This document shows, piece after piece, positions 6,553 through 64,000 of a stretch of DNA of 64,000 nt. How positions within the stretch are numbered: the first letter of the stretch is position 1; the number at the start of each line of letters is the position of its first letter. The notes beneath the pieces are model-generated. The model did not search any database and had not been told where the DNA came from. It saw only the letters and a program-made list of their open reading frames with translations. Source of the DNA: Rhizobium sp. FKL33 (lineage in GTDB: Bacteria; Pseudomonadota; Alphaproteobacteria; Rhizobiales; Rhizobiaceae); assembly GCF_005222915.1 (NCBI RefSeq), contig NZ_STFX01000008.1, forward strand, positions 62,001 through 126,000. Reading direction: 5' to 3'. The position numbers and the translations under genes were made by a program.

Positions 6553-6576
6553 GCTCATTGATTACCCTATTACATC

Positions 6577-6606
6577 AGGCCCGACGAATATGACGCCGGG
6601 CCTTTT
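6577..6606 (+). terminator. Rho-independent terminator after the L,D-transpeptidase gene
   Basis: Six-bp GC stem (6578-6583 with 6597-6602) followed by TTTT. Confidence 0.7.
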
Positions 6607-6805
6607 GCATTAACCACTTCTTTAGAGATTTTCCCGTTTTGGCGCATGTCCCATTCTGGGCCAATTGACTATTTTTTATCATTCGTTAATCTTTCTAAAA
6701 GGTTACAGCGGGGTGTTGAGAACCGCTGGAAAGACGGGATTTTGAGCACTCCCGCTCTGAACCGGATGCCTCGATAGTTCAGCGCGTATTGGCAAAGGTG
6801 GCGTT

Positions 6806-8182: not shown

Positions 8183-8359
8183 CGTACGCGCTCTCGAAAG
8201 GGGCGCATCCTGCGCTCCTTTCGCCAATCAGCAAAGCCGACAAGGCTCCGGCTACGCCGCCCCTCACCGCAACAATCCGACAGATCTACCTGCTGAAACG
8301 CATCCGCGCCGGCAATCGCCAATTTGCGCGTGAAATTTACTGGTGCAGGAACGCCTGCT

Positions 8360-8372
8360 TCACGTTACGTGA
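8360..8372. promoter_or_regulatory. 13-bp perfect inverted repeat upstream of the LuxR gene
   Basis: TCACGT-T-ACGTGA, directly followed by the 8-bp palindrome GAGGCCTC. It sits 16 bp upstream of a putative -35 box, a place where an activator could bind. Its link to the LuxR-type protein is inference. Confidence 0.4.
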
Positions 8373-8388
8373 GGCCTCATCTCGAAAC

Positions 8389-8416
8389 TTGGAATGAATT
8401 TCTAGGACTATATACT
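8389..8416 (+). promoter_or_regulatory. Putative sigma-70 promoter of the LuxR gene
   Basis: TTGGAA, 16-nt spacer, TATACT, in an A/T-rich patch about 60 bp before the ATG at 8478. Confidence 0.35.
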
Positions 8417-8477
8417 GTATTTTTACCCCTAAATTTTACTGGACTCTGTTTTCGCCACAAATGAATACTAGCGTCTC

Positions 8478-9230
8478 ATGAACCAACGCGACAAGAATAA
8501 CGGACCACTGGACGTGACAAGAACCGAGGACGCAACGCATGCGATTTTCGAAATCTACAGCAAGGCCAGTTATTCGGACTGTATTGAAGTATTTTCAAAT
8601 TTCATCTCTGCCTTTGGGGTCAAGAATTTCACCATTCTCGAGACGGATCTCGGCTGTCGTCAACGCGATGTCATGTTGGCCCATGCCTGGGACGACCGCT
8701 GGCGGAGCTTCTGCCTGCAGTCCGGCCACCTCCATCACGACCCCCTCCTGACAATGATCGAGCGCGACCATGGCGCGTTCACGCTGACCGAGCGAATGGA
8801 AAGGAACCGGCCCTGCACGGATGCCGGCCACATCCTACGGCGCTTCGGCGCCTTTGGCTGGCATGATGCGCTGTGCGTGCCCATCCATCGCGGCGGGCTG
8901 CGCTATGGCGTGGCGAACTTGGTCTCCACACATCGGATAGCGCCTGTCGAGAAGGCGCAACTGACCGCAGCTGCTTTCGCCTTCCATCAACGACTTCGCT
9001 GTCTTGCGCCCAAGGAGGGGTTCCGCACGCCGCCAGCCGGCCTCGGCTCAGAAGAAATCGCCTGCCTCAGGCTGCTCGCCACCGGCCTGTCCGACGTCAA
9101 GACCGGCGAAATGCTCGGCCTCGGCGGCGGCGCCGTTCATGCGCTGATCGAAAGCGCCAAGCAGAAGCTCGCCGCGCAGAACCGCGCAGAATTGGTGAGC
9201 CTCGCCCATTCGCTGGCGATCATCGCCTGA
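8478..9230 (+). CDS. LuxR-family transcriptional regulator with autoinducer-binding-like domain (LuxR solo)
   Basis: A 250-residue cytoplasmic regulator. The N-terminal half resembles the autoinducer-binding domain (IYSKASYSDCIEVFSNFISA near residue 30; SGHLHHDPLL, where the conserved Asp-Pro of LuxR proteins lies). The C-terminal 65 residues resemble a GerE/LuxR helix-turn-helix (GSEEIACLRLLATGLSDVKT, then KQKLAAQNRAELV), but the recognition helix reads GGGAVHALIESAK and departs from the usual TVKxHxxxxxxKL consensus. No luxI-type synthase is near, so it may answer signals made elsewhere or by other cells. A bidirectional terminator follows. Confidence 0.8.
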   Translation: MNQRDKNNGPLDVTRTEDATHAIFEIYSKASYSDCIEVFSNFISAFGVKNFTILETDLGCRQRDVMLAHAWDDRWRSFCLQSGHLHHDPLLTMIERDHGAFTLTERMERNRPCTDAGHILRRFGAFGWHDALCVPIHRGGLRYGVANLVSTHRIAPVEKAQLTAAAFAFHQRLRCLAPKEGFRTPPAGLGSEEIACLRLLATGLSDVKTGEMLGLGGGAVHALIESAKQKLAAQNRAELVSLAHSLAIIA

Positions 9231-9237
9231 ACGAAAA

Positions 9238-9259
9238 AGCCCGGCGCGGCGGCCGGGCT
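9238..9259. terminator. Bidirectional terminator between the LuxR and alcohol dehydrogenase genes
   Basis: Perfect 8-bp stem (9238-9245 with 9252-9259). On the minus strand it is followed by TTTTT, so it mainly serves the alcohol dehydrogenase operon; it lies between convergent genes. Confidence 0.75.
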
Positions 9260-9284
9260 CTCTCTACTTGTCAGAACGTTGCGA

Positions 9285-10430
9285 TCAGATGCACTGCGCA
9301 AACAGCGTCTTGGCCGCATCCAGCGTCAGTTCCACCGGATTGCCGCCGGCGGTCGGGTCGACGATCGCCATCTCGGCCATTTCGTCGATGCGATCGGTTC
9401 CGACGCCGAGCGCCGACAGCTTGTCGGGCACGCCGAGTTCTTCGCGCAGCTTCAGCACATAATCATAGAAACCATTGAAGCCGCCGGAAATGCCGAGATA
9501 GGCGGCGGCGGCGGCGATCTTGTCCTCGATCGCCGGACGGTTGAAGGCCAGCACCGGCGGCATCACCACAGCGTTGGTCATGCCGTGATGGGTGTTGTAG
9601 ATCGCGCCCACGGGATGGCTGAGCGAATGAATTGCGCCGAGGCCCTTCTGGAAGGCGACGGCGCCCATGGCGGCGGCGCTCATCATATGGGTGCGGGCTT
9701 CGATATCGGTCCCGTCCTTGTAAGCGCGGGGCAGATATTCCTTGACCAGCCGCAGGCCTTCGAGCGCGATGCCCTGGCTCATCGGATGATAGAAGGGCGA
9801 GGAATAGGCTTCGAGGCAATGCGCAAACGCGTCCATGCCGGTGCCTGCGGTGATGACCTTCGGCATGCCCACCGTCAGTTCCGGATCGCAGATGGTGATC
9901 GCCGGCAGGAACTTCGGATGGAAGATGACCTTCTTGGTGTGCGTCGCCGAATTGGTGATGACCGAGGCGCGGCCGACTTCCGAGCCCGTTCCCGCCGTGG
10001 TCGGCACGGCGATGATCGGCGCGATGCCATCGACCGAGGCGCGCGTCCACCAATCGCCGATATCCTCGAAATCCCAGACCGGGCGGGTCTGGCCGGCCAT
10101 GAAGGCCACGCATTTGCCGAGATCGAGGCCCGAGCCGCCGCCGAAGGCGACGACGCCGTCATGGCCGCCATCCTTGAACGCCTTCACGCCGGCTTCGAGA
10201 TTGATGTCGTTCGGATTGGGATCGACATCGGCGAAGATCGCGCGGCCGAGGCCGGCGGCGTCGAGAATATCGAGCGCGTTCTGCGTGATCGCCATCGGCG
10301 CGAGGCCGCGATCGGTGATCAGGAGCGGCTTCTTGATGCCGACGGCCTTGCAGTGATCGGCGAGTTCCTTGATCCGGCCAGCGCCCATCTTGACGGCGGT
10401 CGGATAGCTCCAGTTTGCGGTGATCGACAT
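9285..10430 (-). CDS. Iron-containing alcohol dehydrogenase
   Basis: A 381-residue group III (Fe-ADH) enzyme. Visible family motifs: the nucleotide-binding GGGSGLDLGK after VVAFG, PTTAGTGSEVGRASVI, and the metal-binding region TAGTGMDAFAHCLEAYSS followed by SLSHPVGAIYNTHHGMTN. The ATG at 10430 gives MSITANWSYP; the frame is open upstream to 10508, but this would overlap the aldehyde dehydrogenase gene. The aldehyde dehydrogenase stop lies one base upstream, so the two are cotranscribed and probably act in sequence, alcohol to aldehyde to acid. Substrate is inferred only: an alcohol derived from an amine, given the ligase, permease and amidohydrolase in the same locus. Confidence 0.92.
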   Translation of the reverse strand: MSITANWSYPTAVKMGAGRIKELADHCKAVGIKKPLLITDRGLAPMAITQNALDILDAAGLGRAIFADVDPNPNDINLEAGVKAFKDGGHDGVVAFGGGSGLDLGKCVAFMAGQTRPVWDFEDIGDWWTRASVDGIAPIIAVPTTAGTGSEVGRASVITNSATHTKKVIFHPKFLPAITICDPELTVGMPKVITAGTGMDAFAHCLEAYSSPFYHPMSQGIALEGLRLVKEYLPRAYKDGTDIEARTHMMSAAAMGAVAFQKGLGAIHSLSHPVGAIYNTHHGMTNAVVMPPVLAFNRPAIEDKIAAAAAYLGISGGFNGFYDYVLKLREELGVPDKLSALGVGTDRIDEMAEMAIVDPTAGGNPVELTLDAAKTLFAQCI

Positions 10431-10431
10431 G

Positions 10432-11814
10432 TTAGAACGACTTTCTGAGGTGGTAGGATTTCGGACGGGTGAGGTTCTGGAAGCCGATGACGGAGAGCGA
10501 GCCGCCACGGCCCGTTTCCTTGACGCCGGTCCAGCACAGCGCGGGATCGAGATAGTCGGCGCGGTTCAGGAACACGGTGCCGGTTTCGATCTCGTCGCCG
10601 ATGCGGGTCGCGCGCTCCGCATCCTTGGTCCAGACCGAGGCGGTCAGGCCGTATTTGCTGTCGTTCATCAGCGCGATGGCTTCTTCGTCGGACTTCACCT
10701 TCATGATGCCGACGGCCGGGCCGAAGGTCTCTTCCGTCATGAAGGACATGGAGTGATCGACGTCGACGAGGATCTGCGGCGCGATATAGGCGCCGCCGTC
10801 ATCGGCCGGGAACAATTTGGGATCGACCAGCGCCTTGGCGCCCTTGGCGACAGCGTCCTCGATCTGGGCGCGCACGGTGGCGGCGAAGCGTTTATGCGCC
10901 ATCGGCCCGAGCGAGGTTTCGGGGTCGAGCGGATTGCCGAGCTTGTAGTTGGACACCCAGGCGACCGACTTCTCGACAAAGGCGTCGTAGAGGTTCTCGT
11001 TCACATAGATGCGCTCGATGCCGCAGCAGCACTGGCCGGAATTATAGGTCGCGCCATCCATCAGCGTGTCGACCGCGGCGTCGAGATCGGCGTCTTCCAT
11101 CACATAGCCGGGATCCTTGCCGCCGAGCTCCAGGCCGATGCCCGTGAAGGTGCCTGCGGCGGCGCGTTCGATCGAGCGGCCGCCTTCGACGGAGCCGGTG
11201 AAGTTGATGAAGTTGAACGAGCCGGCCGCGATCAGCTTGGACGTGGTGTCATGATCGAGGAAGACGTTCAGGAACACGTCTTCCGGCACGCCGGCTTCGG
11301 TGAAGGCGCGCACCAGGCGTTCGCCGACGAGCAGCGTCTGGCTGGCATGCTTAATTACCACCGTATTGCCGGCCATCAGCGCCGGGGCGACCGTGTTGAT
11401 CGCGGTCATATAGGGATAGTTCCACGGCGCGATGACGAAGACGACGCCATGGGCTTCGCGCTTGATGTAGCGCTCGAATTTGTCGCTCTTCTCGATGAGC
11501 AGCGGCGCGAGCGCATCATGGGCGATCGAGGCGACATAGTTGGAGCGCTCGTTGAAGCCCTTGAACTCGCCGCCGTAACGAACCGGACGACCCATCTGCC
11601 AGGCCAGTTCCTTGACCACGTCCTCGGCCATTTCGTTGAGGCGGGCGACGCCCTTCAGCACCAGCGAGACGCGCTCTTCGAGCGGGCGCTTGGCCCAGGA
11701 TTTCTGCGCCTTGCGGGCGCGCGCCACGACGGCGGCCGCGTCGTCATAGCTGAGCGCCGGACGCTCGGCGTAAACCGAGCCGTCGACCGGCGATATGCAT
11801 TGGATTATCGTCAT
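10432..11814 (-). CDS. NAD(P)-dependent aldehyde dehydrogenase
   Basis: A 460-residue ALDH superfamily enzyme. It has the cofactor region VIAPWNYPYMTAINTVAPAL, the catalytic Glu in GIGLELGGKDPGYV and the catalytic Cys within NSGQCCCGIERIYV, then EETFGPAVGIMK. Length is slightly under the usual 480-500. The stop codon is one base from the start of the alcohol dehydrogenase, indicating coupled expression. Upstream lie a toxin-antitoxin pair and then a glutamine-synthetase-like ligase on the same strand. By analogy with gamma-glutamylated amine pathways it could oxidise a gamma-glutamyl-aminoaldehyde; this is inference. Confidence 0.92.
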   Translation of the reverse strand: MTIIQCISPVDGSVYAERPALSYDDAAAVVARARKAQKSWAKRPLEERVSLVLKGVARLNEMAEDVVKELAWQMGRPVRYGGEFKGFNERSNYVASIAHDALAPLLIEKSDKFERYIKREAHGVVFVIAPWNYPYMTAINTVAPALMAGNTVVIKHASQTLLVGERLVRAFTEAGVPEDVFLNVFLDHDTTSKLIAAGSFNFINFTGSVEGGRSIERAAAGTFTGIGLELGGKDPGYVMEDADLDAAVDTLMDGATYNSGQCCCGIERIYVNENLYDAFVEKSVAWVSNYKLGNPLDPETSLGPMAHKRFAATVRAQIEDAVAKGAKALVDPKLFPADDGGAYIAPQILVDVDHSMSFMTEETFGPAVGIMKVKSDEEAIALMNDSKYGLTASVWTKDAERATRIGDEIETGTVFLNRADYLDPALCWTGVKETGRGGSLSVIGFQNLTRPKSYHLRKSF

Positions 11815-11830
11815 CTTTCTTCACTCCAGT

Positions 11831-12247
11831 TCAACAGGCCAGCACTCTCACATGGCCCGCCGCGCCATAGGCCAATATGGCCTGGTCGCGGGTAATGATG
11901 GTCAAATCGTGTTCGCGCGCGGTGGCGATGAGGATGCGGTCGATAGGGTCCTTGTGGGACAGATGGGGAAGCTCGCAAGAGGCCATGAAGATATCGGCCG
12001 TGACAGGCGCCTCCTCGAACTTGGCCGCATCCAAAAAAACCCAATACCACTCCTTCGCCGCCCTCGTTTCAGCAATCCGCCGGCGCGATAAAAGCATGCC
12101 CATTTCCCATGCCGTCACAGGAGAGACAAGAACCTTCCTTCCGTCCTGCTCCGCATAGTTGATCGCGTCCATTGCCTTCTTGGTCATAGTCTCGTGTCTC
12201 GACATCCAGATGACTGCGCAGGTGTCGAGCAACAGTCCGCTACCCAT
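11831..12247 (-). CDS. PIN-domain ribonuclease toxin (VapC-like)
   Basis: A 138-residue PIN-domain protein. The acidic residues of the family are visible: LLLDTCAVIWMS near the N-terminus, the Glu in SPVTAWEMGMLLSRRR, and HKDPIDRILIATA near residue 100. Known PIN toxins cleave tRNA or rRNA. The start ATG at 12247 overlaps the upstream gene's stop by 8 bp (a GTG at 12253 is an alternative), so translation is coupled to the XRE gene, as expected of an antitoxin-toxin pair. It is unusual that the partner is a XRE protein, not a PHD/AbrB/RHH antitoxin. The pair sits between the ALDH and ligase genes. Confidence 0.85.
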   Translation of the reverse strand: MGSGLLLDTCAVIWMSRHETMTKKAMDAINYAEQDGRKVLVSPVTAWEMGMLLSRRRIAETRAAKEWYWVFLDAAKFEEAPVTADIFMASCELPHLSHKDPIDRILIATAREHDLTIITRDQAILAYGAAGHVRVLAC

Positions 12248-12725
12248 TGCCACGCTCGCCAGTGTAAAGTTCGTCGCTCCATTCGAATTCCATCGGCTCG
12301 GTCAGATCGACCCCCGGCATGATCGTGACGCTGCCCCTCATGCAGCCGAACACAGAATGCAGTTCGACGAGGTCCCCGTTGCGTCCCTCCATCCAGCGTT
12401 TGCCGTCCCTGTAGATGACATCCGTCCCCGAATACCACTGCTTGGACGGTGTTGTCTGCTCAGTCGCATCCCCCTCGACGCTGTAGGGGCTCTGCTTGCT
12501 CTCGCTGAAGCCGACTGCCTGTCCCCGACGGTGCACAGCGACCTCTTCGAGACTGACGCCGAGAAACTCCGCTATCCGGTCCTGCTCGTCGGCGCTCATC
12601 TTGCGCTCGCCCGTCAACATGCGGGACACGGCGCTGGCGTCGAGCCCGAGATGCCGCGCCAGTCCCCGAACCGAGCTTCCACGCGCCTCCAACTGTCGAT
12701 GAAACCATGCCGTATCGATAGCCAT
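12240..12725 (-). CDS. XRE-family helix-turn-helix protein, probable antitoxin of the PIN gene
   Basis: A 161-residue protein. Residues about 8-60 are a Cro/C1-type helix-turn-helix (GSSVRGLARHLGLDASAVSR, then MLTGERKMSADEQDRIAEFL). The C-terminal half (YRDGKRWMEGRNGDLVELHS and MPGVDLTEPMEFEWSDE) is not recognised and could be a metal- or toxin-binding part. The ATG at 12725 is preferred because a GGAGG ribosome-binding site lies 5 nt before it; an ATG at 12737 places this site inside the gene. It overlaps the PIN toxin gene by 8 bp. The expected role is autorepressor and antidote. Confidence 0.8.
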   Translation of the reverse strand: MAIDTAWFHRQLEARGSSVRGLARHLGLDASAVSRMLTGERKMSADEQDRIAEFLGVSLEEVAVHRRGQAVGFSESKQSPYSVEGDATEQTTPSKQWYSGTDVIYRDGKRWMEGRNGDLVELHSVFGCMRGSVTIMPGVDLTEPMEFEWSDELYTGERGNG

Positions 12726-12802
12726 AGCAGCCTCCATGGGTAAGAGACCATTCTACCCGATCGTTGTGATTTCGTCAAAACCAGCGGAGGAAGCGTTGCG
12801 AT

Positions 12803-14170
12803 TTACGCACGCTCGAAGCCGCGCGCCACCTCCCAGTCCGTCACGCGACGGTCATACTCTTCCTGCTCCCAGCGCGCCGCGCGGGTATAGTGATCCACCA
12901 CGTCGTCGCCGAAGGCGTCGCGCAGCAGCTTGGAATTGGTGAACATGTCGGTGGCGTCGCGCAGCGTCTTGGGCACTTCGCGCACGCCGGCTGCGCCATA
13001 GGCGTCGCCGCTGAACGGATCTTCGAGCTCCATCTTCTTCTCGATCCCGTCGATTCCGGCGGCCAAAAGCGCCGCAAAGGCGATGTAGGGATTGAGATCC
13101 GAGCCGCCGACGCGGCATTCGATGCGAATGCCCTTGGTGCCGTCGCCGCACAGGCGATAGCCGGCAGTGCGGTTGTCCTTGGACCAGACGGCCTTGGTCG
13201 GTGCAAAGGTGCCGGCCACGAAACGCTTGTAGGAATTGATATAGGGCGCGAGCGCCAGCGTGATTTCGCCGGCATGCGCCAGAAGTCCGGCGACATAATG
13301 CTCCATCAGCTTGGACATGCCATATCGGCCATTGGGATCGAAGAACAGCGGCTTGCCGTCGAGCGACCACAGCGACTGGTGGACGTGAGACGAGGAGCCG
13401 GCCGCCGAGTAATTCCACTTGGCGAGGAAGGTGATGGCTTTGCCGCGGCTCCAGGCGATTTCCTTGCAGCCATTCTTGATGATGGCGTGCCGGTCGGCCA
13501 TGGTCAGCGCTTCGGCATAGCGCACATTGATCTCCTCCTGGCCGGCGGAGGCCTCGCCCTTGGAATTCTCAACCGGGATGCCCGCGCCCTGAAGGCCGTT
13601 GCGGATCGCCCGCATCACATCTTCTTCCTTGGTGGTCTGGAAGATGTGGTAGTCTTCGTTGTAAGCCGAGACGAGATTGAGATCGCGATAGCCGCTCTGG
13701 CGGGCGTCGTCATAGGTCTGGTCGAACAGGAAGAATTCGAGTTCGGTCGCCATGAAGGCCTTCATGCCCATGGCTTCCAGACGCTTGACCTGCTTCTTGA
13801 GGATGGCGCGCGGCGAATGCGGCACTTCCTCATGGGTGTGATGGTCGAGCATATCGCACAGCACCATGGCCGTGCCTTCGAGCCAGGGAATCCGACGCAG
13901 CGTGGAAAGATCCGGCTTCATCGTATAGTCGCCATAGCCCTTTTCCCAGGAGGTGGACTTGTAGCCGGAGACGGTCTCCATCTCCATGTCGGTCGCGAGC
14001 AGATAGTTGCAGCTATGGGTTTCCTCATAAGCGCTCTCGACGAAATACTGCGCCTGGAACCGTTTGCCCATCAGGCGGCCCTGCATGTCGACCTGGACGG
14101 CGAGAACCGTGTCGATGCGGCCCTCCGCCACGTCCTTCTTGAGGTCGTCGAATGAATAGGCAGTGCTCAT
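12803..14170 (-). CDS. Glutamine synthetase family gamma-glutamyl-amine ligase (PuuA/GlnA4-like)
   Basis: A 455-residue glutamine-synthetase-fold protein. Motifs: FMATELEFFLFDQTYDD (metal-binding Glu), EINVRYAEALTMADRH, then AAGSSSHVHQSLWS in place of the usual G-S-G-M-H-V-H, and ECRVGGSDLNPYIAFAA near residue 370. The departures from GlnA and the neighbouring permease, dehydrogenases and amidohydrolase suggest ligation of glutamate to an amine (as PuuA does with putrescine or GlnA4 with ethanolamine), using ATP. The starts at 14182 and 14170 are both possible; MSTAYSFDDL is chosen. A strong hairpin separates it from the permease gene upstream. Confidence 0.85.
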   Translation of the reverse strand: MSTAYSFDDLKKDVAEGRIDTVLAVQVDMQGRLMGKRFQAQYFVESAYEETHSCNYLLATDMEMETVSGYKSTSWEKGYGDYTMKPDLSTLRRIPWLEGTAMVLCDMLDHHTHEEVPHSPRAILKKQVKRLEAMGMKAFMATELEFFLFDQTYDDARQSGYRDLNLVSAYNEDYHIFQTTKEEDVMRAIRNGLQGAGIPVENSKGEASAGQEEINVRYAEALTMADRHAIIKNGCKEIAWSRGKAITFLAKWNYSAAGSSSHVHQSLWSLDGKPLFFDPNGRYGMSKLMEHYVAGLLAHAGEITLALAPYINSYKRFVAGTFAPTKAVWSKDNRTAGYRLCGDGTKGIRIECRVGGSDLNPYIAFAALLAAGIDGIEKKMELEDPFSGDAYGAAGVREVPKTLRDATDMFTNSKLLRDAFGDDVVDHYTRAARWEQEEYDRRVTDWEVARGFERA

Positions 14171-14233
14171 GAGGAAATCCATTCTTGTTTTGTCCGGGCT
14201 CTTCGCGCCGGTTGTTCCCATTATTTAACGAGA

Positions 14234-14271
14234 AAGCCGCCTCCGGCCTTCCGGGACCGGAGGCGGCTTTC
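14234..14271 (-). terminator. Strong hairpin between permease and ligase genes
   Basis: Perfect 14-bp stem (14234-14247 with 14258-14271) with a 10-nt loop; on the minus strand the stem ends in TTT. It lies after the permease stop (14281) and before the ligase start, so it either terminates or attenuates read-through. Confidence 0.7.
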
Positions 14272-14280
14272 GAGATCGGA

Positions 14281-15831
14281 TCAGGCTTCGCCCACCGCCC
14301 GTTCGGCAGCTGCGATTTCCGCCTGCCGCTTGGCGACTTCGTCACCGATCGGCGGGCCCTTGAAGCGGCGCTGCTCGAAGGCGAACCAGATCACCACGGC
14401 GAGCACGATGAAGCCGAGGGTGATTTCGCCCACCGCGTCATTCGGCGGCTGGATCGCGACGAAGATGATAATCGCCATGCCGATGACGGTCAGAACCGCG
14501 ATCAGCTTGAACAGACCCGCGCCGAGATTCCACGGGCCGGGAGCCGGCCATTTCGACGTGCCGTAAGCGAAGAAGCCGAGCACGATCGGGATCGCGAAGG
14601 ACAGGAACAGGAAGATCAGCGTCGCGTTGACGACGGTGACATACAACGAGGCTTCGCCGATCTTGATCTTGAGCGCCAGGAACACGAAGGCGACTGCGAG
14701 CGCGGCGGCGGTCCAGATGGCGGTGACCGGCGAACGCAGCTTGGGATGCACGGTTGCAAGCGACTTCGAACCGACCGGCATGCCGCCGTCGCGCGAGAAG
14801 GCGAAGATCATGCGCGACGCCGACGTCACCGTGGCCAGACCGCAGAGGAACTGGGCGATGAAGATGGCGATGTAGATGATCTTGGTGAGCCAGACCGGCA
14901 TAATGGCGGACATGGTTCCGAAGAACACGCCCCAACCGGAAGCGGCGCCGGCATTCATGTCCGGAATGGCTATGACGAAGGCGGAAAGCATGATCCAGCC
15001 GGCGAGCGACGACCAGAAGACCGACATCACGATGGACTTCGGCACCGAATGCGCGGCCTTGTGCGTTTCTTCCGACGTATGGGCGGACGCATCATAACCC
15101 GTGATCGTGTAGACCGGCAGCAACAGGCCGAGCATGAACACATAGAGCATGCTGTCGGATTGCGGCCAGACGGAGCCGCCCGTTTCGCCCGAATAGTTGG
15201 TGAAGGTCCACAGCCGCGAGAAATCATGCGTCGGCGCCAGAACCAGGCACAGCACCGTGATGACCGCAGCCGTGATCATGATCAGCGTGCCCGAGAAATC
15301 GGTAAGCTTGGCGGTCAGGCCGATGCCGAAATGGTTAATCAGCGCCTGAATGGCGGTAATCACCAGGACGATGACCATCTGTTCGTTTTCAGAACCGGTG
15401 AGCCCCAGTTCCGGAAACGCGCCGGCTGCGAAAAGCGCCGTGCCGATATTGATGGCGCCGAGCACGGTGATCAGGCCGAGAAGATTGAGCCAGGCGGTGA
15501 ACCAGCCGGTGAAACGGTTGCCGAGGATCGACGCCCAGTGATAGAGGCCGCCCGCGGTCGGATAGGCCGAGGCGATCTGCGCCATGCCGAGCGCGAACAC
15601 CGCCGACACCAGGCAGCCAACCGGCCAGCCGATGCCGATGCCGGCGCCGCCGACGCCCGACGTCGCCTGTGCGAGAGAGTTGATGCCGCCCGAAAGAATG
15701 CAGATGATGGAAAAGGAGATGGCGAAGTTGGAAAATCCGCTCATCCGTCGCTCGAGTTCCTGGGCATAGCCCATGGAATGCAGGATCTTAAGATCCTGCT
15801 GCTTATCTGTATCAGTATAACCGTCAGACAT
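14281..15831 (-). CDS. APC-superfamily amino acid/amine permease
   Basis: A 516-residue inner-membrane transporter with about 12 hydrophobic helices. The N-terminal region has the APC signature: MSGFSNFAISFSIICILSGG (first helix and unwound loop), then YPTAGGLYHWAS. This arrangement is typical of the amino acid/choline or GABA permease subgroup. It belongs to the minus-strand amine locus and probably imports the substrate of the ligase next to it. The exact substrate cannot be read from the sequence. Confidence 0.92.
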   Translation of the reverse strand: MSDGYTDTDKQQDLKILHSMGYAQELERRMSGFSNFAISFSIICILSGGINSLAQATSGVGGAGIGIGWPVGCLVSAVFALGMAQIASAYPTAGGLYHWASILGNRFTGWFTAWLNLLGLITVLGAINIGTALFAAGAFPELGLTGSENEQMVIVLVITAIQALINHFGIGLTAKLTDFSGTLIMITAAVITVLCLVLAPTHDFSRLWTFTNYSGETGGSVWPQSDSMLYVFMLGLLLPVYTITGYDASAHTSEETHKAAHSVPKSIVMSVFWSSLAGWIMLSAFVIAIPDMNAGAASGWGVFFGTMSAIMPVWLTKIIYIAIFIAQFLCGLATVTSASRMIFAFSRDGGMPVGSKSLATVHPKLRSPVTAIWTAAALAVAFVFLALKIKIGEASLYVTVVNATLIFLFLSFAIPIVLGFFAYGTSKWPAPGPWNLGAGLFKLIAVLTVIGMAIIIFVAIQPPNDAVGEITLGFIVLAVVIWFAFEQRRFKGPPIGDEVAKRQAEIAAAERAVGEA

Positions 15832-57554: not shown

Positions 57555-57630
57555 GGGCCTGTAGCTCAATGGTTAGAGCCGGCGGCTCATAACCGCTTGG
57601 TTGGGGGTTCGAGTCCCTCCGGGCCCACCA
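57555..57630 (+). tRNA. tRNA with CAT anticodon, probably tRNA-Ile2 (lysidine type)
   Basis: A complete 76-nt cloverleaf with encoded CCA: 7-bp acceptor stem, D arm GCTC/GAGC, anticodon stem GGCGG/CCGCT with loop CTCATAA, variable loop TGGTT, T arm with TTCGAGT. CAT may be Met or, after lysidine modification by TilS, Ile. C4-G69, C5-G68 and A37-A38 are present, the features reported for TilS recognition of tRNA-Ile2, and the body resembles E. coli tRNA-Ile2 more than elongator tRNA-Met. Assignment to Ile is therefore favoured. The DNA composition changes right after it, so it is a likely integration site. Confidence 0.92.
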
Positions 57631-57686
57631 TCACCTTCTTATTGCTTTAATTTCAAAGGGTTTTTCGTTGTAGCTTGACACCACTT

Positions 57687-57790: not shown

Positions 57791-58606
57791 TCATTTTGCA
57801 GCCGTGACAATCAACTCCCTCGCTGGCGCTCCCTTACCGCCCTTAACCGTATAGAGCAGGTCGACTGCATTCATTTCGAAGCGACCAAACACTTCCCGGA
57901 TTTCAGGCACATCGTTGATGGATAAAATGAAGCGACCCTTGATCCTGCCAAGGCGCTCAGCGATTGCCGCGAACTGACCGCGCTCGAAGATCAGCTTCCC
58001 ATAATCGTCCTCGCACCCCCAGTATGGTGGATCGAGGTAGAAGAGCGTTCCGGGCCGATCGTAGCGATCGACGAAATCTAACCAATCCAAGTTCTCTATT
58101 GTCACGCCGGCAAGGCGCTCATGAATGTCTTCCAACTGCGATGCAAGCTTGGTCAAATTGAACCGAGCGCTACGATCGTAAGAGACACCGAAAGAAGGGT
58201 TTGTCGGTCGACCGCCGAAGGCCAGACGCTGGAGATAGAGAAACCGAGCTGCGCGTTCTAAGTCTGTGAGCGTTTGGGGGTCACAAGCCTTCAGCCGTTC
58301 GAATTCCCTGCGACTGGTGATCTGGAATTTCAGCGTATCCATGAACTGCGGATAGTGCCGCTGCAGAATGCGGAAGAGGTTGGTGATCTCGCCGTTGCGA
58401 TCATTAATGACTTCGCCCTTCGGGGCAAATTTGCGCCTGAAGAACACGCCCCCCATCCCTACGAAGGGCTCCGCATAAAGGGTGTGCTGGGTCTCCGCGA
58501 TTATCTTGCAGATTATGGAAGCCAGACTGCGCTTCCCCCCCATCCAGGCGGCCGGCGGTAAGGCATTTGCGACGGTCTTAGAATCGTTTTCGAAATCCAT
58601 TTTCAA
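57791..58606 (-). CDS. DNA N6-adenine methyltransferase (Dam/D12 class)
   Basis: A 271-residue alpha-class adenine methyltransferase. Motif I region PPAAWMGGKRSLASII and YAEPFVGMGGVFFRRK binds SAM; the catalytic motif IV is FYLDPPYWGCEDDY; RFILSINDVPEIREVF matches the family's motif VI region. Small Dam-type orphan enzymes of this kind are common in phages and islands. No cognate restriction enzyme is adjacent. It is encoded towards the tRNA, in DNA more A/T-rich than the chromosome to the left. Likely target is a short adenine-containing site such as GATC, not proven. Confidence 0.88.
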   Translation of the reverse strand: MKMDFENDSKTVANALPPAAWMGGKRSLASIICKIIAETQHTLYAEPFVGMGGVFFRRKFAPKGEVINDRNGEITNLFRILQRHYPQFMDTLKFQITSRREFERLKACDPQTLTDLERAARFLYLQRLAFGGRPTNPSFGVSYDRSARFNLTKLASQLEDIHERLAGVTIENLDWLDFVDRYDRPGTLFYLDPPYWGCEDDYGKLIFERGQFAAIAERLGRIKGRFILSINDVPEIREVFGRFEMNAVDLLYTVKGGKGAPARELIVTAAK

Positions 58607-59064: not shown

Positions 59065-60015
59065 TTGGCTGGATTGACGAGCGAGCAAACTGCAGAAATC
59101 GAGTATCTAAGGTCGACCCATTCCAGCACTCTGCGGCCGGTGTCGCCCGGCCTCGAAGAGATCCTCCATAAGTCGTTCTCCGTTCTGGACCACGGTATCA
59201 TCAGAGTGGTCGACTACATGGGCGACGACAGCGCGATCGTGCAGGCGGCGCGGGTGTCCTATGGCCGAGGCACGAAACGGATCCAGGAAGACAGCGGACT
59301 CATCCGGTATCTTCTACGCCACCATCACACGACTCCATTCGAGATGGCGGAGATCAAGTTCCATGTGAAGCTACCGATATTCGTCGCGAGGCAATGGATC
59401 CGCCACCGCACGGCGAGCGTGAACGAATATTCAGCTAGATATTCCGTACTCGACAAAGAATTCTACATTCCCCAGCCAGAACATCTTGCCGCGCAATCGA
59501 CGTCGAACCGTCAAGGACGCGGAGCGGTGTTGGAGGGAGACGAAGCAGCCGAAGTCCTGTCACTTCTGCGCCGCGACGCCGAGCAGGCATACGACGACTA
59601 CTCGACGATGCTGAACGAACCCGCAGGTCCCGATCATCGCGAAGACCGGTCCGGTCTTGCACGTGAACTGGCCCGCATGAATCTCTCGCTCAACTTCTAT
59701 ACCCAATGGTATTGGAAGACCGATCTGCACAACCTGATGAACTTCCTGCGGCTGAGAGCCGACTCGCACGCACAGTACGAGATTCGGGCCTACGCCGAAA
59801 TCATGCTGGAGATTATGGCGGCCTGGGTTCCGATCGCTCATTCGGCGTTTAAGGAATACCGGATGGAAGCGGTGCAGTTGTCCGGAACGGCCGTGAAGGC
59901 GGTTCGTCGGATGATAGCTGGAGAAGCCGTTAGTCAGGAGAACAGCGGACTGAGTGCGCGAGAATGGCAGGAGCTCAATGCCGCCCTCGCCCTAACATCG
60001 CTGAAGGCACCGTAA
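59065..60015 (+). CDS. thyX: FAD-dependent thymidylate synthase ThyX
   Basis: A 316-residue flavoenzyme that methylates dUMP to dTMP with methylene-tetrahydrofolate and NADPH. The hallmark RHRx7S motif is intact ([17 protein letters not shown]), as are [20 protein letters not shown] and [19 protein letters not shown]. The start is a TTG at 59065 with a near-perfect GGAGGT ribosome-binding site 8 nt upstream. It is convergent with the operon to its right (9-bp gap) and lies in island-like DNA. Whether it is the cell's only thymidylate synthase or an accessory copy, perhaps serving the neighbouring nucleic-acid system, cannot be told here. Confidence 0.93.
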
Positions 60016-60024
60016 AGGTGCCGA

Positions 60025-60981
60025 TCACGAGTTCCGCTGTGTAAAGAGCTGCGTCAGGGGGAAAACGTAGGCGGAGGTTCCGACGGTCGAATAGGTCTCC
60101 TCGTTGTATGCGCCGACCTCGGCATAGCAGACCTGAACGTTACGATGTCTTTGAGCATAGAGGCCGACGCCGATAGTTGAAAGCTTCGTGTGCAGGGGCG
60201 CGAGAACGACGTTCGATCTCTCGGAGTTCGATATCGAGCTCTCCAGCTCCTTTACCACCTTCAGCGGATCGCGGGCCGAAAACTCGAATGTCGACTCGAT
60301 GTTCGCGTAGTTGGACGCAAGTTCTTTGAAGAAGACATCGTTTTTGCCGGAGAGGGTCTCATTGATCGATTCCGACCGCAGGCCCCTCCCCAGCACCAGA
60401 TACTTCGGTTCGTATGCCTCGATGATGGCGCGTGCGCGTGGAATCTCGAAGCCCATGAGGACCACGAGCCTCGTCGGGCGTGATGGCCACATTTCGCCGG
60501 CGTATCCGACGACCGATCTGCATTGCGTCACTTTTCCGGAAAGCGGATCGGCCATATCGCCCGCGCTCACATACACCAGTTCGCAGTTCCGGCGTTTAGA
60601 GCTGTCGATGCCGCGAAGCACCTCCAGAAGCATCAGAAGCTCCTCGCGGCGAAACGCGGTGATGTCGATCACGGTATCGACCAAGCTGATCGAGTTTACC
60701 GCTTCGTTGATCCGTTCCGCAGTTCCGAGCGGGTCGCTGGTCCGAATCTCGACAACCCGGAGATCGGAATGCAGGTTCCTGACCTCTCTTACCCTCGCAT
60801 CCGCGAGTTCGCTCCGGCCTTCGGACGCGAAGAGAATGCCTCTCCGGACCATGGCGGGCGGTGCAGTGCACGCTACCACAGCCGACCGTTCCTCGAAACT
60901 CAGTCGCGCGACGATGGGCCTGGGTTTAGTCCAGAGCCGGGCGGGAAGGTCAGTTATCGGAATGCTCAACCCTGTCTCCAT
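60025..60981 (-). CDS. Unrecognised alpha/beta protein, last gene of the HD-ATPase operon
   Basis: A 318-residue soluble protein that I cannot place in a family. It alternates predicted strands and helices: VVEIRTSDPLGTAERINEAV, VDTVIDITAFRREELLMLLE, RLVVLMGFEIPRARAIIEAY and SNVVLAPLHTKLSTIGVGLY suggest two Rossmann-like halves, the second ending in a TKLSTIG segment. There are no membrane helices, zinc ligands or nuclease motifs that I can recognise. Its start overlaps the ATPase stop (ATG at 60981 or TTG at 60966, the latter with a GGAGACAGGG site), so it is coupled to that gene and is probably the system's sensor or effector. The C-terminus converges on thyX. Confidence 0.8.
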   Translation of the reverse strand: METGLSIPITDLPARLWTKPRPIVARLSFEERSAVVACTAPPAMVRRGILFASEGRSELADARVREVRNLHSDLRVVEIRTSDPLGTAERINEAVNSISLVDTVIDITAFRREELLMLLEVLRGIDSSKRRNCELVYVSAGDMADPLSGKVTQCRSVVGYAGEMWPSRPTRLVVLMGFEIPRARAIIEAYEPKYLVLGRGLRSESINETLSGKNDVFFKELASNYANIESTFEFSARDPLKVVKELESSISNSERSNVVLAPLHTKLSTIGVGLYAQRHRNVQVCYAEVGAYNEETYSTVGTSAYVFPLTQLFTQRNS

Positions 60982-62809
60982 CAAGATTCAGCGAAAACTG
61001 GCTTTCGGCCGATCCGTCCTGCTTGAGACGGGCCTTCACGAATTCCCCGGGATTTCGCATAGCTACCTCGAGATCCCTTGACATGATCGAGAGGTGGGCG
61101 GCGTATCCCGATATGTCGAGCTTGTAGTGCGGCCCGAGACGTCTTGCCAGGATGTAGCGCGGCCGCCGGCCGCCTAGTGCTTCCTTAGCGGCGTAATCGG
61201 ATCTTTGCAAATAACCCAGCCGGACGCCGAGGTTCAGCACGCGCTCCAGTTCGGGCTTCGGTCGGTCCCTCAGCACGACTGAGAACACACGCTGCTCGCT
61301 CGCTTTCGGGTCGAGAAGCTTGCCTCGGAACAAGCGTCCCAGTCCCTCTATCAGGTTGCGGAGCTGTTCGTAGAGCACGGTTTCGTGGCCGTCGGCATGA
61401 AGGCTTTCGATCCCTTCACTCAGATCGGTCTGTGTGTCGGAGATTTCCGTTGTCTGGCGCGTCAACAGCTCAAGGAACTCAGCGGACCAGTCCTTAATAA
61501 CAGCGTCCTGAATACTGACCGGAATCTCGCTCACCATTCCGGAGTCACCCAATCCCTCGCTTACCACTCTGTCGTACATGCGGCTCGCAGGCTCCAGAAA
61601 CCAGCGCACGACGCCAGACGAAAGGTCGACCAGAGATCGGAATCCGCTATAGCTGTAAGTGTGGGCTGATTTCGAGGATCCGGCGATCTCCCTCATGAAT
61701 CTTGGGATAGTGTAGCGCCTTGCTTCGTCGCGACTGCGGGCCGATCCTACCTGAACCTCGGACGATGAGTTCATCGCGACATGCTCGGCGATGATCTCGG
61801 CTGCGATGGCATGCAGCCGTTCCTCTTGCGCCGTGTCCAGCGGAAAGAACTGATCGACGGACGAAGAGATGCCCGAGTTCTCCAAGCGCTTGGTCACGAT
61901 CTCGTACAGACGTCGGCTGTAGGTGTCGGAGGATGCAGTATAGACTGCGGTCAAATTCACCTCAGCGTAGTCATGCGGGCTCTCGATGATGCGGTTATCG
62001 AGGGTGCGCATCGTGGCATAGGCAAGCTGCGTGGTGACCTTGAGGCATATGTCGCGGGTGCTTCTGGTCGATACCCAGGAGTTAAGGACCCGCTGTAAGG
62101 GTATTGGAAGGTTGTCGGCATCGTCCAGCATAACGAACAATGGAACGCACGGGACGTTGTCGAGGCGCTTTATCTCGCGGGCGAGAGGAACAAGAAAATC
62201 GAGAAATCCCGCGAGAGCACCGACATAGTCCGGGTCCGCGTTGCGAAATGGCTGCCTCACGAGGAACTGACGCACCCTGAAGATGTCTGTCTCGCATGTC
62301 TCGGCGATACGCCGAAATGGCGATCCCCCCTGTGTAGGTTCAATGGCCGCGTCCTTGGCCGTGGATCCTCCGGCGATGTTGAAGAGCTCTTCGAATCTTT
62401 CCCGAAAACGGGTCGCCGATGCCTGCGAGATCTCACTGCTGAAGCTGTCCAGAAGCTGCGCCACCCTCAGGACGACGTGCATCACCAGTAAATGCTCGCC
62501 GATGGCGTTGACGGCATAGCCCTTGAACCTGTTGAACTCGGGGGCGCCGAAGTCGGCGGTCCGCAGGGGAACGTGCACCGCGACAAATGGAAGGTCCTTC
62601 AGCTTCTTGGCCTTCGCCTGTAGGATCATGACCCGCGGTTCGAGGCTGCGAAGCAGCATGCTTTTGCCCGTACCGCGAGCCCCGTGAATGAACGTGTTCC
62701 CGAGCTCCTTCAAACGGGGAAAGTCGGTTTGCATCTCCACGAAGTTTCGAGCGATGTATTCGGGGTTCACGTGCTCAGGATTCTGTACGCCAAACGGGTT
62801 TGTGCTCAC
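60950..62809 (-). CDS. ORC/CDC6-like AAA (STAND-type) ATPase
   Basis: A 619-residue P-loop ATPase. Walker A is GARGTGKS at residues 43-50, Walker B is VPLFVMLDDADNL at about 223-233, and a sensor-like Arg region follows (SWVSTRSTRDICLKVTTQLA). The N-terminus (MSTNPFGVQNPEHVNPEYIA) is of the type seen in ORC/CDC6-family bacterial ATPases. The second half is a winged-helix-like and helical region ending VARMRN-type basic motifs (LEVAMRNPGEFVKARLKQDG). GTG start overlaps the HD gene stop (GTGA). Together with an HD hydrolase and a methyltransferase it suggests a switch that activates an effector. Confidence 0.85.
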   Translation of the reverse strand: MSTNPFGVQNPEHVNPEYIARNFVEMQTDFPRLKELGNTFIHGARGTGKSMLLRSLEPRVMILQAKAKKLKDLPFVAVHVPLRTADFGAPEFNRFKGYAVNAIGEHLLVMHVVLRVAQLLDSFSSEISQASATRFRERFEELFNIAGGSTAKDAAIEPTQGGSPFRRIAETCETDIFRVRQFLVRQPFRNADPDYVGALAGFLDFLVPLAREIKRLDNVPCVPLFVMLDDADNLPIPLQRVLNSWVSTRSTRDICLKVTTQLAYATMRTLDNRIIESPHDYAEVNLTAVYTASSDTYSRRLYEIVTKRLENSGISSSVDQFFPLDTAQEERLHAIAAEIIAEHVAMNSSSEVQVGSARSRDEARRYTIPRFMREIAGSSKSAHTYSYSGFRSLVDLSSGVVRWFLEPASRMYDRVVSEGLGDSGMVSEIPVSIQDAVIKDWSAEFLELLTRQTTEISDTQTDLSEGIESLHADGHETVLYEQLRNLIEGLGRLFRGKLLDPKASEQRVFSVVLRDRPKPELERVLNLGVRLGYLQRSDYAAKEALGGRRPRYILARRLGPHYKLDISGYAAHLSIMSRDLEVAMRNPGEFVKARLKQDGSAESQFSLNLDGDRVEHSDN

Positions 62810-63879
62810 GAAATTGGCTCCTGATGCGGTGTCTCACAATGCTGGTCGCGCAGCTTGCAAGCATCAAACCTAGGCTGTAGTTCCCTGACCTTACTCGAAG
62901 TGCCCGGGTATCCCACCTCTTCGAGATCTACTGCAATGGAGTCGATCTCCACATCGCCGTCCATGATCACGAGCTTCGCGCGAATGCGGTCGTAGCTTGC
63001 GAAGCCTGCCAGAAAGCGGTTGCAGTAGCGCCGTTCGAGCTCGCATTTCTCCAGTCGCTCGGCGATGTAGTCGACAAACATGATCTCGCGCGTTCCGCCG
63101 CCTTTGGCCGGAATCACGAACGTTTGTGGAAGAAGCTGCTTATCGATAGTGAACGCGAGATGCACCGACTTGCCTTTGAAATCGATTCTTCTATTGATGG
63201 CGCGACAGTAAAGATTTGAGAGCACGGAAAGTGGCGGCGTCGCGGCGTCTGCAATCGCAACGTCGTCGGCGCGCGTGTAGTTTTCACTCAATTCGTCGGC
63301 GAGACGGAGCAAGGCGGCAAGGCGCCAAGCGTGAACTTCGATGCCACCGATGTTTGGGACGGGTTCGCTCATAAGGCGTGTAATCGTATCCCTGCTGCCG
63401 TCTTCCATTTCCCCCCCATGCGCCTGTGCGATGGAAGAGATTATCCTGCGCTCGATGTCGCTCAATCCCGCCGCCTCGCCGACCTCGCGCAATATTGCGG
63501 CGGCCTTCTTCTCATGGCCATCGCGGCTCATCGCATTCCCAGCGTCGTGCAGCAGTATGGCGACAAGCAGGACAAAGCCCTCGTAGGCTAAGACCTGTTT
63601 AATGGCTGGCGCAGCACTGTCCGATTCTAAGCCGAGCATCAGCCCTGCAGTCTCGATGACGTCGTCCACGTGCCCGATGTCGTGCCTCGTATACCGGTCG
63701 CCTTTCTGCGCCAGGGCGGCTCCCGCCACGGCATAGTACTTCTCTGCAAGACGCTGCTTTATGGAGGTGTAATGTTCAAAGTATCTGTTGCCGCGGTTTG
63801 GAAGCTTGACGGAGCTTTTCTTGAGAGATTTCTTCAACCATTGTTCCAGAGCGGAGTCTACCGATATCAGCACGGACAC
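62806..63879 (-). CDS. HD-domain phosphohydrolase-like protein
   Basis: A 357-residue protein with GTG start 1 bp after the methyltransferase stop. A complete set of HD metal ligands can be traced: His66/His70 (RYTRHDIGHVDDVIE), His111-Asp112 (LLHDAGN), His122, His154 (AQAHGG) and Asp195 (LLRLADELSENY). Its HD core lies in residues 60-200 and is followed by a beta-rich region of unknown role (VHLAFTIDKQLLPQTFVIPA). HD proteins cleave nucleotides, cyclic nucleotides or nucleic acids. The substrate is unknown. Overlap with the ATPase gene by 4 bp implies a fixed stoichiometry. Confidence 0.88.
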   Translation of the reverse strand: MSVLISVDSALEQWLKKSLKKSSVKLPNRGNRYFEHYTSIKQRLAEKYYAVAGAALAQKGDRYTRHDIGHVDDVIETAGLMLGLESDSAAPAIKQVLAYEGFVLLVAILLHDAGNAMSRDGHEKKAAAILREVGEAAGLSDIERRIISSIAQAHGGEMEDGSRDTITRLMSEPVPNIGGIEVHAWRLAALLRLADELSENYTRADDVAIADAATPPLSVLSNLYCRAINRRIDFKGKSVHLAFTIDKQLLPQTFVIPAKGGGTREIMFVDYIAERLEKCELERRYCNRFLAGFASYDRIRAKLVIMDGDVEIDSIAVDLEEVGYPGTSSKVRELQPRFDACKLRDQHCETPHQEPIS

Positions 63880-63880
63880 G

Positions 63881-64000
63881 TTATCTGCCTCCCGCCTGAC
63901 TGGACATGGCGATCACCTTGTCGAACACGGCCTTCGCCAGGATAGGAGGGACAGCATTGCCAACCTGCTGTTGTTGGAATCCTATCGATCCATGGAAGAC
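63881..64000 (-). CDS. DNA cytosine-5 methyltransferase, C-terminal end only
   Basis: The last 39 residues of a protein whose gene continues beyond the window. The sequence GFQQQQVGNAVPPILAKAVF is the motif X of C5-cytosine methyltransferases (QxGNAVPP). The stop lies one base before the HD-gene GTG, so it is probably the first or an upstream gene of the same operon. Its partner genes downstream are not a classical restriction enzyme. Confidence 0.85.
   Translation of the reverse strand, partial: VFHGSIGFQQQQVGNAVPPILAKAVFDKVIAMSSQAGGR

What the first reader, a model, noticed from the sequence alone, without database searches (positions are those of the whole stretch)
59065..64000. Candidate undescribed defence/modification operon: C5-methyltransferase, HD hydrolase, ORC/CDC6-like ATPase, unknown protein
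Seen: four minus-strand genes with 1-bp spacing, a GTGA overlap and a longer overlap, all coupled. Known: AAA/STAND ATPases, HD hydrolases and DNA methyltransferases recur in anti-phage systems, and islands at tRNA genes are typical homes. Inference: the ATPase senses infection or unmodified DNA, the HD protein and the unknown 318-residue protein act as effectors, and the methyltransferase marks self. I do not recognise this gene set as any named system (BREX, DISARM, Zorya, Septu, Druantia, Qat and so on).
Basis: partly seen in the sequence, partly recalled or inferred. Interest (0 to 1): 0.82.

Follow-up and report, generated by a model that had tools for sequence, protein, structure and literature searches.

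The report
Methylation-linked CARF–HD operon with ThyX
A mobile four-gene bacterial cassette pairs a DNA-marking enzyme with an ATPase, a CRISPR-type nucleotide sensor and a phosphate-cutting enzyme, repeatedly has a thymine-making enzyme beside it, and is probably an anti-phage defence that I found under no name.

Summary
The four coupled minus-strand genes exist as described: C5-methyltransferase, HD enzyme, ORC/Cdc6-like ATPase, 319-residue protein. The finding's start (59065) is a separate plus-strand gene, thyX. The "unknown" protein is probably no effector: family model, predicted structure (pLDDT 93) and nearest folds (Can1, Can2, Cam1, Csm6) make it a stand-alone CARF sensor (PADLOC "CARF6"). 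The HD protein keeps its metal-site residues and resembles Ppx/GppA and cyclic-nucleotide phosphodiesterases. HD–ATPase–CARF form a block in 26 distinct loci (Alpha-, Beta-, Gammaproteobacteria, Magnetococcales, Bacteroidota; chromosomes, plasmids, viral contigs); a C5-methyltransferase of one conserved family adjoins in 25. ThyX adjoins in 9 of 26, on several branches of the ATPase tree and from two ThyX clades; the host also has ThyA, and 25 sampled relatives lack ThyX. Sister systems swap HD for PRTase-CE or a calcineurin-like enzyme; in two of three an adenine methyltransferase is adjacent. I judge this a mobile, methylation-coupled defence: a new variant of the catalogued ORC–CARF6–"conflict effector" kind, with ThyX a recurrent partner. 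Defence activity, CARF ligand and HD substrate are inferred. Two likely key papers were not readable, so novelty is provisional.

The parts
63881..64000 (-). C5-cytosine DNA methyltransferase, 3' end only in the window (gene continues to position 64948; L002:6382-7449:-, 355 aa)
   Evidence: ORF; PF00145 1.1e-59; TIGR00675 2e-50
62806..63879 (-). HD-CE family protein, candidate metal-dependent phosphohydrolase effector; H66, H70, H111, D112, H122, H154, D195 invariant
60950..62809 (-). ORC-CDC6-like AAA+ ATPase with Walker A (GARGTGKS) and Walker B (LFVMLDDADN)
   Evidence: PF24389 4.9e-100; motif check
60025..60984 (-). stand-alone CARF protein (CARF6), candidate nucleotide sensor/adaptor; I read two CARF units in the model, the PADLOC label names three
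59065..60015 (+). ThyX, flavin-dependent thymidylate synthase, convergent (9 bp between the two ORF ends); recurrent partner gene, not one of the four
   Evidence: PF02511 4.8e-58; adjoining in 9 of 26 distinct loci; the only ThyX found in G000, which also has ThyA; none in 25 of 25 other relatives searched
57791..58606 (-). D12-class (Dam-like) adenine DNA methyltransferase on the same side of the tRNA; membership in the system not shown
   Evidence: PF02086 4.2e-23
57555..57630 (+). tRNA-Met, left boundary of the accessory region
   Evidence: many alignments to relatives end at query 961-962, i.e. window 57630-57631, some run to 970-985

Best explanation
A mobile, methylation-coupled anti-invader (most likely abortive or nucleotide-depleting) defence system. 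Shown: the gene set, the catalytic motifs, the conserved block, the mobile contexts, the CARF and HD folds (predicted), the recurrent ThyX. Inferred: (1) the C5-methyltransferase marks resident DNA at a fixed target; (2) the ORC/Cdc6-like AAA+ ATPase is the DNA- or invasion-responsive switch; (3) the CARF protein binds a nucleotide and couples the switch to the effector; (4) the HD enzyme is the effector and hydrolyses a small phosphate compound, probably a nucleotide, so that the invader cannot replicate; (5) ThyX, where present, supplies dTMP to offset or reverse the damage, which points to a deoxynucleotide (thymidylate) pool as the battleground.
For: HD-ATPase-CARF block in 26 distinct loci, adjoining methyltransferase in 25; distance correlations HD/ATPase/CARF 0.94 each and 0.74-0.82 with the methyltransferase over 23 loci. 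Mobile settings: conjugative plasmid next to Vsr, a second methyltransferase and SIR2; plasmid between IS1182 copies next to AbiEii; viral contigs, with phage structural genes read by eye; tRNA site. CARF fold. HD site invariant and Ppx/GppA/PDE-like. Effector slot swapped in sister systems: PRTase-CE, calcineurin-like phosphoesterase. ThyX association arose more than once.
Confidence: 0.5

Rival explanations
1. The HD protein is an off-switch: it degrades the nucleotide that the CARF protein binds (like a ring nuclease), and the ATPase-CARF pair with an unseen partner is the real effector or a regulator.
Against: No messenger synthase in the operon; a clear Cas10 score only in the Magnetococcales genome and a SMODS hit only in G000 among the 15 handles searched. 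PRTase-CE in the same slot is not a phosphodiesterase family.
Confidence: 0.17
2. A restriction-like system: the ATPase-CARF complex recognises DNA unmodified at the methyltransferase's site and the HD protein is a nuclease that cuts it.
Against: The best structural matches of the HD model are Ppx/GppA and PDEs, which does not exclude cutting DNA. The methyltransferase region between motifs VIII and IX is as conserved as the catalytic half. Vsr is not specific to the block: 3 of 8 viral methyltransferase loci with it, 6 of 72 without it.
Confidence: 0.17
3. A DNA-modification and nucleotide-metabolism cassette that helps a plasmid or phage replicate and evade host restriction (methyltransferase masks its DNA, ThyX makes dTMP, HD adjusts nucleotide pools), i.e. 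counter-defence or fitness cargo rather than host defence.
For: Carried by plasmids and viral contigs; ThyX is a known phage gene family (PHROG thymidylate synthase hit).
Against: An ORC ATPase and a CARF protein are not needed for this. The usual viral ThyX and methyltransferase genes lack these partners: 80 of 80 nearest viral ThyX loci and 72 of 80 nearest viral methyltransferase loci have no HD, ATPase or CARF gene.
Confidence: 0.13

Closest known systems
ORC-CDC6-like / HD-CE / PRTase-CE 'conflict' families (Pfam PF24389, PF24391, PF24390) with CARF6 proteins (PADLOC)
   Same: ATPase and HD proteins match these Pfam models above cut-off and the CARF protein matches PADLOC CARF6; the order effector-ATPase-CARF is the same in the PRTase and calcineurin-like versions
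   Different: This version has the HD effector plus an adjoining C5-methyltransferase, often thyX and sometimes vsr. Whether the papers behind these models describe that could not be read here. That the suffix CE means 'conflict effector' is recalled.
Can1 (type III CRISPR ancillary nuclease with two CARF domains in one chain)
   Different: No nuclease domain recognised; not in a CRISPR locus; partner proteins instead of fused domains
Type III CRISPR / CBASS nucleotide signalling
   Different: No cyclase in the operon; clear Cas10 or SMODS hits elsewhere in few of the carrying genomes searched
Methyltransferase-containing multi-gene defences (DISARM, Druantia, BREX)
   Same: A DNA methyltransferase beside an ATPase; the methyltransferase matches DruM2 and DrmMII models as well as many type II models
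   Different: No other component of these systems was listed for the scanned proteins (25 of 62 matches listed for the methyltransferase)
Ppx/GppA exopolyphosphatase domain III and class I cyclic-nucleotide phosphodiesterases
   Different: Low identity (7-19%), no Ppx catalytic domains; substrate unknown

Membership tests
CARF superfamily, CARF6 group | Sequence match to the family model | tested here: met
   PDLC01917 5.5e-121 over residues 7-315
CARF superfamily, CARF6 group | CARF (Rossmann-like) fold | tested here: met
   [not shown]
CARF superfamily, CARF6 group | Binding of a cyclic oligonucleotide | not testable with these tools
   No ligand data
ORC-CDC6-like / HD-CE conflict families (Pfam) | Match above gathering score | tested here: met
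   ATPase 336.4 bits against cut-off 27; HD 80.9 bits against cut-off 27
ORC-CDC6-like / HD-CE conflict families (Pfam) | Anti-invader activity | not tested
   No experiment
Type III CRISPR-Cas ancillary module | Cas10 at the locus | tested here: not met
   Cas10-palm hits of G000 lie on contigs C60, C54 and C16, none on C58; the best scores 27.5 bits (cut-off 27), and the E. coli control also rings, so GGDEF-type proteins are likely
CBASS | CD-NTase (SMODS) in the operon | tested here: not met
   The only SMODS hit of G000 is on C33, not on C58; other CD-NTase models were not searched
DISARM / Druantia / BREX | Core partners besides the methyltransferase (named from recall: YprA-type helicase, PglZ, BrxC and others) | tested here: not met
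   PADLOC scan of CARF, ATPase, HD, ThyX, Dam and the C5-methyltransferase (25 of 62 matches listed) shows only methyltransferase models of these systems; the contig end hides what lies upstream of the operon
Type II restriction-modification | A cognate restriction endonuclease | tested here: inconclusive
   No nuclease family above cut-off among the four proteins; HD fold is closest to Ppx/PDE, which does not exclude cutting DNA
ThyX (flavin-dependent thymidylate synthase) | Family match and RHR-type signature | tested here: met
   PF02511 4.8e-58 (window copy); signature present in 9 of 9 system-associated ThyX

The most novel reading that the evidence does not exclude
A methylation-gated, nucleotide-sensing immune system aimed at the thymidylate/deoxynucleotide pool: the CARF protein, without any cyclase, reads a nucleotide whose level changes when a phage takes over DNA synthesis; the ORC-like ATPase licenses the HD enzyme to destroy a thymidine (or related) nucleotide; ThyX was recruited repeatedly as the built-in antidote that refills dTMP. 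This would be a CARF pathway independent of cyclic oligoadenylate synthases.
Probability: 0.22. Interest if true: 0.85.

Novelty: new variant of a known kind. Interest (0 to 1): 0.62.

Why it matters
It links three things usually studied apart: CARF nucleotide sensors, DNA self-marking by methylation, and deoxynucleotide metabolism. A stand-alone CARF protein in an operon with no messenger synthase asks directly what ligand CARF proteins read outside CRISPR. The repeated capture of thyX gives a concrete, cheap hypothesis for the effector's substrate. The sister systems (HD, PRTase or calcineurin-like enzyme; C5- or adenine methyltransferase) suggest one switch reused with different effectors.

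Tried and rejected
Rejected: the 319-aa protein as effector (CARF protein). Rejected: thyX as the host's housekeeping thymidylate synthase (ThyA present; no ThyX in 25 other relatives). Rejected: chance co-location of two common phage genes as the explanation of ThyX adjacency (0 of 80 nearest viral ThyX loci carry HD/ATPase/CARF; 0 of the 72 methyltransferase loci without the block have ThyX against 4 of the 8 with it, two of these four being near copies). Limits of those controls: only the 80 best of 356 ThyX relatives (flank 7 kb) and of 173 methyltransferase relatives were returned, ranked by closeness to the window's protein; the system-bearing viral ThyX were not among those 80, so close outsiders of the viral ThyX trio may be missing from the tree.

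Led nowhere or weak: solved-structure search by sequence gave no hit for the ATPase up to E 0.1; for CARF only SAKe entries with no stretch passing on its own and a reductase at 0.044; for HD an exopolyphosphatase at 0.0033. Foldseek on the CARF model gave a mixed list, cleared only by the second aligner; folds absent from that list are not excluded. NCBIfam gave nothing above cut-off for CARF, ATPase or HD. PHROGs had no clear hit for CARF, ATPase or HD. Cas10 hits near the cut-off in several carrying genomes were not resolved. Dam (57791-58606) beside the operon may or may not belong; it also matches a PADLOC PD-Lambda-5_B model, 1.3e-22, among methyltransferase models. Of the 14 of 398 genomes over the PF24389 cut-off, several with other arrangements (L009-L015; stretches L249-L254) were not annotated and are not counted as sister systems. 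The methyltransferase conservation test has no matched control set of ordinary restriction methyltransferases.

Literature: 9 of 10 paper searches used; none listed a paper that I recognised as describing this gene set. Two likely sources, Makarova et al. 2020 (10.1093/nar/gkaa635) and Burroughs and Aravind 2020 (10.1128/JB.00365-20), are not held; that they bear on these families is recalled. So absence from print is not claimed.
Full report
Observation. The window is bases 62001-126000 of a 127,099-base contig of a 5.3-Mb genome. Four minus-strand genes run C5-methyltransferase, HD protein, ATPase, 319-aa protein. The methyltransferase ends at window 63881 and begins 948 bases past the window edge; the contig ends 151 bases beyond that start. 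The stated couplings are right. The interval of the finding also takes in a plus-strand ORF, 59065-60015, which is ThyX, convergent with the operon with 9 bp between the two ORF ends.

How often the set recurs. I count as distinct loci those with HD, ATPase and CARF all visible, dropping repeats of one contig or genome (L005 with L036, L008 with L044, L054/L061/L066 with L033, L063/L067 with L056, L068 with L055, L069 with L060, L071 with L058, L076 with L057) and L073, which lies on another contig but has the same coordinates and match values as L072. This leaves the window, L033-L045, L048, L049, L050+L053 (one plasmid across its record start), L051, L055-L060, L072 and G642 (L262), 26 in all. 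A C5-methyltransferase of the window's family adjoins in 25 of 26: in front of HD in 22, behind CARF in 3 (L058, L072, G642). The exception, L044, has two other C5-methyltransferases and a Vsr-like gene 3.5 kb or more upstream. Left out as partial: L046 (contig starts inside the ATPase), L047 (two ATPase fragments), L052 (contig ends inside the ATPase) and L062 (HD only as a remnant, read by eye). By route: of 14 loci found through the ATPase in genome contigs, 12 have HD, ATPase and CARF and 11 of these the adjoining methyltransferase; of 7 found through HD in viral contigs, 7 have all four; of the 80 best viral loci for the methyltransferase, 8 have the block and 72 do not. An ATPase search of 397 genomes of the order found 2, the window's own and G642, which also has all four plus ThyX. 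The system is thus rare. Carriers include Rhizobiales, Rhodobacterales, Magnetococcales, Beta- and Gammaproteobacteria and a Spirosoma (Bacteroidota) plasmid (some orders recalled from genus names).

Co-inheritance. Over 23 of the 26 loci (L044, the Spirosoma plasmid and G642 left out), pairwise distances of HD, ATPase and CARF correlate at 0.94 for each pair and with the methyltransferase at 0.74-0.82, 0 of 2000 permutations reaching the value in each case; shared descent contributes to this. Mean pairwise identity is 53% for the methyltransferase against 32% HD, 37% ATPase and 30% CARF. Its region between motifs VIII and IX (residues 161-296, where target recognition lies in such enzymes; recalled) is as conserved (50.5%) as residues 1-160 (49.6%) over 23 rows, though its first half (161-228) is the least conserved part (36.8%) and its second half (229-296) the more conserved (64.1%). 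I read this as a fixed DNA target, an inference without a matched control.

ThyX. ThyX adjoins in 9 of 26 loci: convergent in the window, L034, L035, L048, L049 and G642; co-directional, with a 1-bp overlap, a 17-bp overlap and a 20-bp gap, in viral contigs L056, L058 and L072. In L037, L040 and L044 the stretch ends within 0.6 kb past CARF, so 9 is a lower bound. In a tree with 80 other viral ThyX, the Rhizobiales ones plus G642 form one clade (support 0.87) and the three viral ones another (support 1.0), neither containing a sampled ThyX from outside the system; those 80 were chosen by closeness to the window's ThyX, so outsiders close to the viral trio may be missing. On the ATPase tree the ThyX-bearing loci fall on several branches, interspersed with loci without ThyX (drawn without printed supports). 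None of the 80 nearest viral ThyX loci has HD, ATPase or CARF. The host has its own ThyA, and none of 25 other relatives searched has ThyX. ThyX is therefore accessory here, and its association with the block most likely arose more than once. Vsr, PF03852, was confirmed in L055, L056 and L058; a related ORF is in L044, and the Agrobacterium record annotates vsr. Vsr is not specific: 3 of 8 viral methyltransferase loci with the block and 6 of 72 without it have it.

Sister systems. L003/L247 has PRTase-CE, the ORC ATPase and a CARF6 protein, overlapped by an N6-type methyltransferase gene. L006/L248 has a calcineurin-like phosphoesterase, ATPase and CARF6; no methyltransferase was recognised in its 11.7 kb, which runs to a contig end (the methyltransferase profiles used there were C5 and Dam only). 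L246 has a D12 adenine methyltransferase, calcineurin-like phosphoesterase, ORC ATPase (PF24389 4.3e-121) and an ORF that matches my CARF profile (5.6e-13, found as L161:1577-2506), and it lies near the same tRNA-Met in a relative. So the ATPase-CARF pair looks like a reusable core, the enzyme in front is exchanged, and in 2 of these 3 an adenine methyltransferase is adjacent. Other PF24389 loci were not annotated.

Signal source. Among 15 genome handles with the system (two pairs probably the same genome), 7 have a Cas10-palm hit over the cut-off, but a clear score appears only in the Magnetococcales genome (103.7 bits, listed twice); the others score 35 bits or less and the E. coli control also rings. 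SMODS is found in 1 of 15, G000, on another contig. Only these two models were searched, and several genomes are incomplete. The CARF ligand is thus unlikely to come from these synthases in general.

Mechanism. I commit to a methylation-coupled defence in which the ORC ATPase and CARF protein gate an HD phosphohydrolase, with ThyX as an optional restorer of thymidylate. Shown are anatomy, conservation, predicted folds and mobile contexts; the sensing, gating, substrate and protective effect are inferred.

Novelty. The component families were already modelled (Pfam, PADLOC), so this is a new variant of a known kind. Two likely source papers could not be read, and nine searches of the held library listed no paper that I recognised as describing the set. 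Papers of which passages were seen: PMC12839542, PMC7159879 (only an author line and a reference), PMC12669027, PMC9704534; the rest were seen as listings.

Noticed in passing
L246 (G420:C1), 9729-14506: Near the same tRNA-Met in a relative: D12 adenine methyltransferase, calcineurin-like phosphoesterase with a wHTH (PF24408), ORC-CDC6-like ATPase and a CARF6-like ORF, in what by eye looks like a mobilisable element.
   Followed up: partly
L247 (G043:C890), 5345-12030: PRTase-CE/ORC ATPase/CARF6/N6 methyltransferase block with a dUTPase gene and a dGTPase-like HD gene just upstream; another link to deoxynucleotide metabolism, perhaps chance.
   Followed up: partly
L055 and L058 (viral contigs): Two viral contigs share genes on both sides of the cassette, but one has Vsr-MTase-HD-ATPase-CARF and the other Vsr-HD-ATPase-CARF-MTase-ThyX at the matching place: a cargo site among phage genes.
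   Followed up: partly
[not shown]
   Followed up: partly
L070, 7989-11795: A methyltransferase 45% identical to the window's without HD/ATPase/CARF; by eye its neighbours look like a histidine-kinase-type ATPase and a receiver protein.
   Followed up: no
window 57791-58606: Dam-like D12 methyltransferase between the tRNA and thyX; relation to the operon unclear.
   Followed up: no
G000:C33:6319-6804: The host genome has a SMODS nucleotidyltransferase (66 bits), possibly part of a CBASS system.
   Followed up: no
L249, L250, L252: Other genes matching ORC-CDC6-like sit in a different recurrent neighbourhood (ORFs of similar size and order before and after the ATPase in three distant genomes); not annotated.
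   Followed up: no
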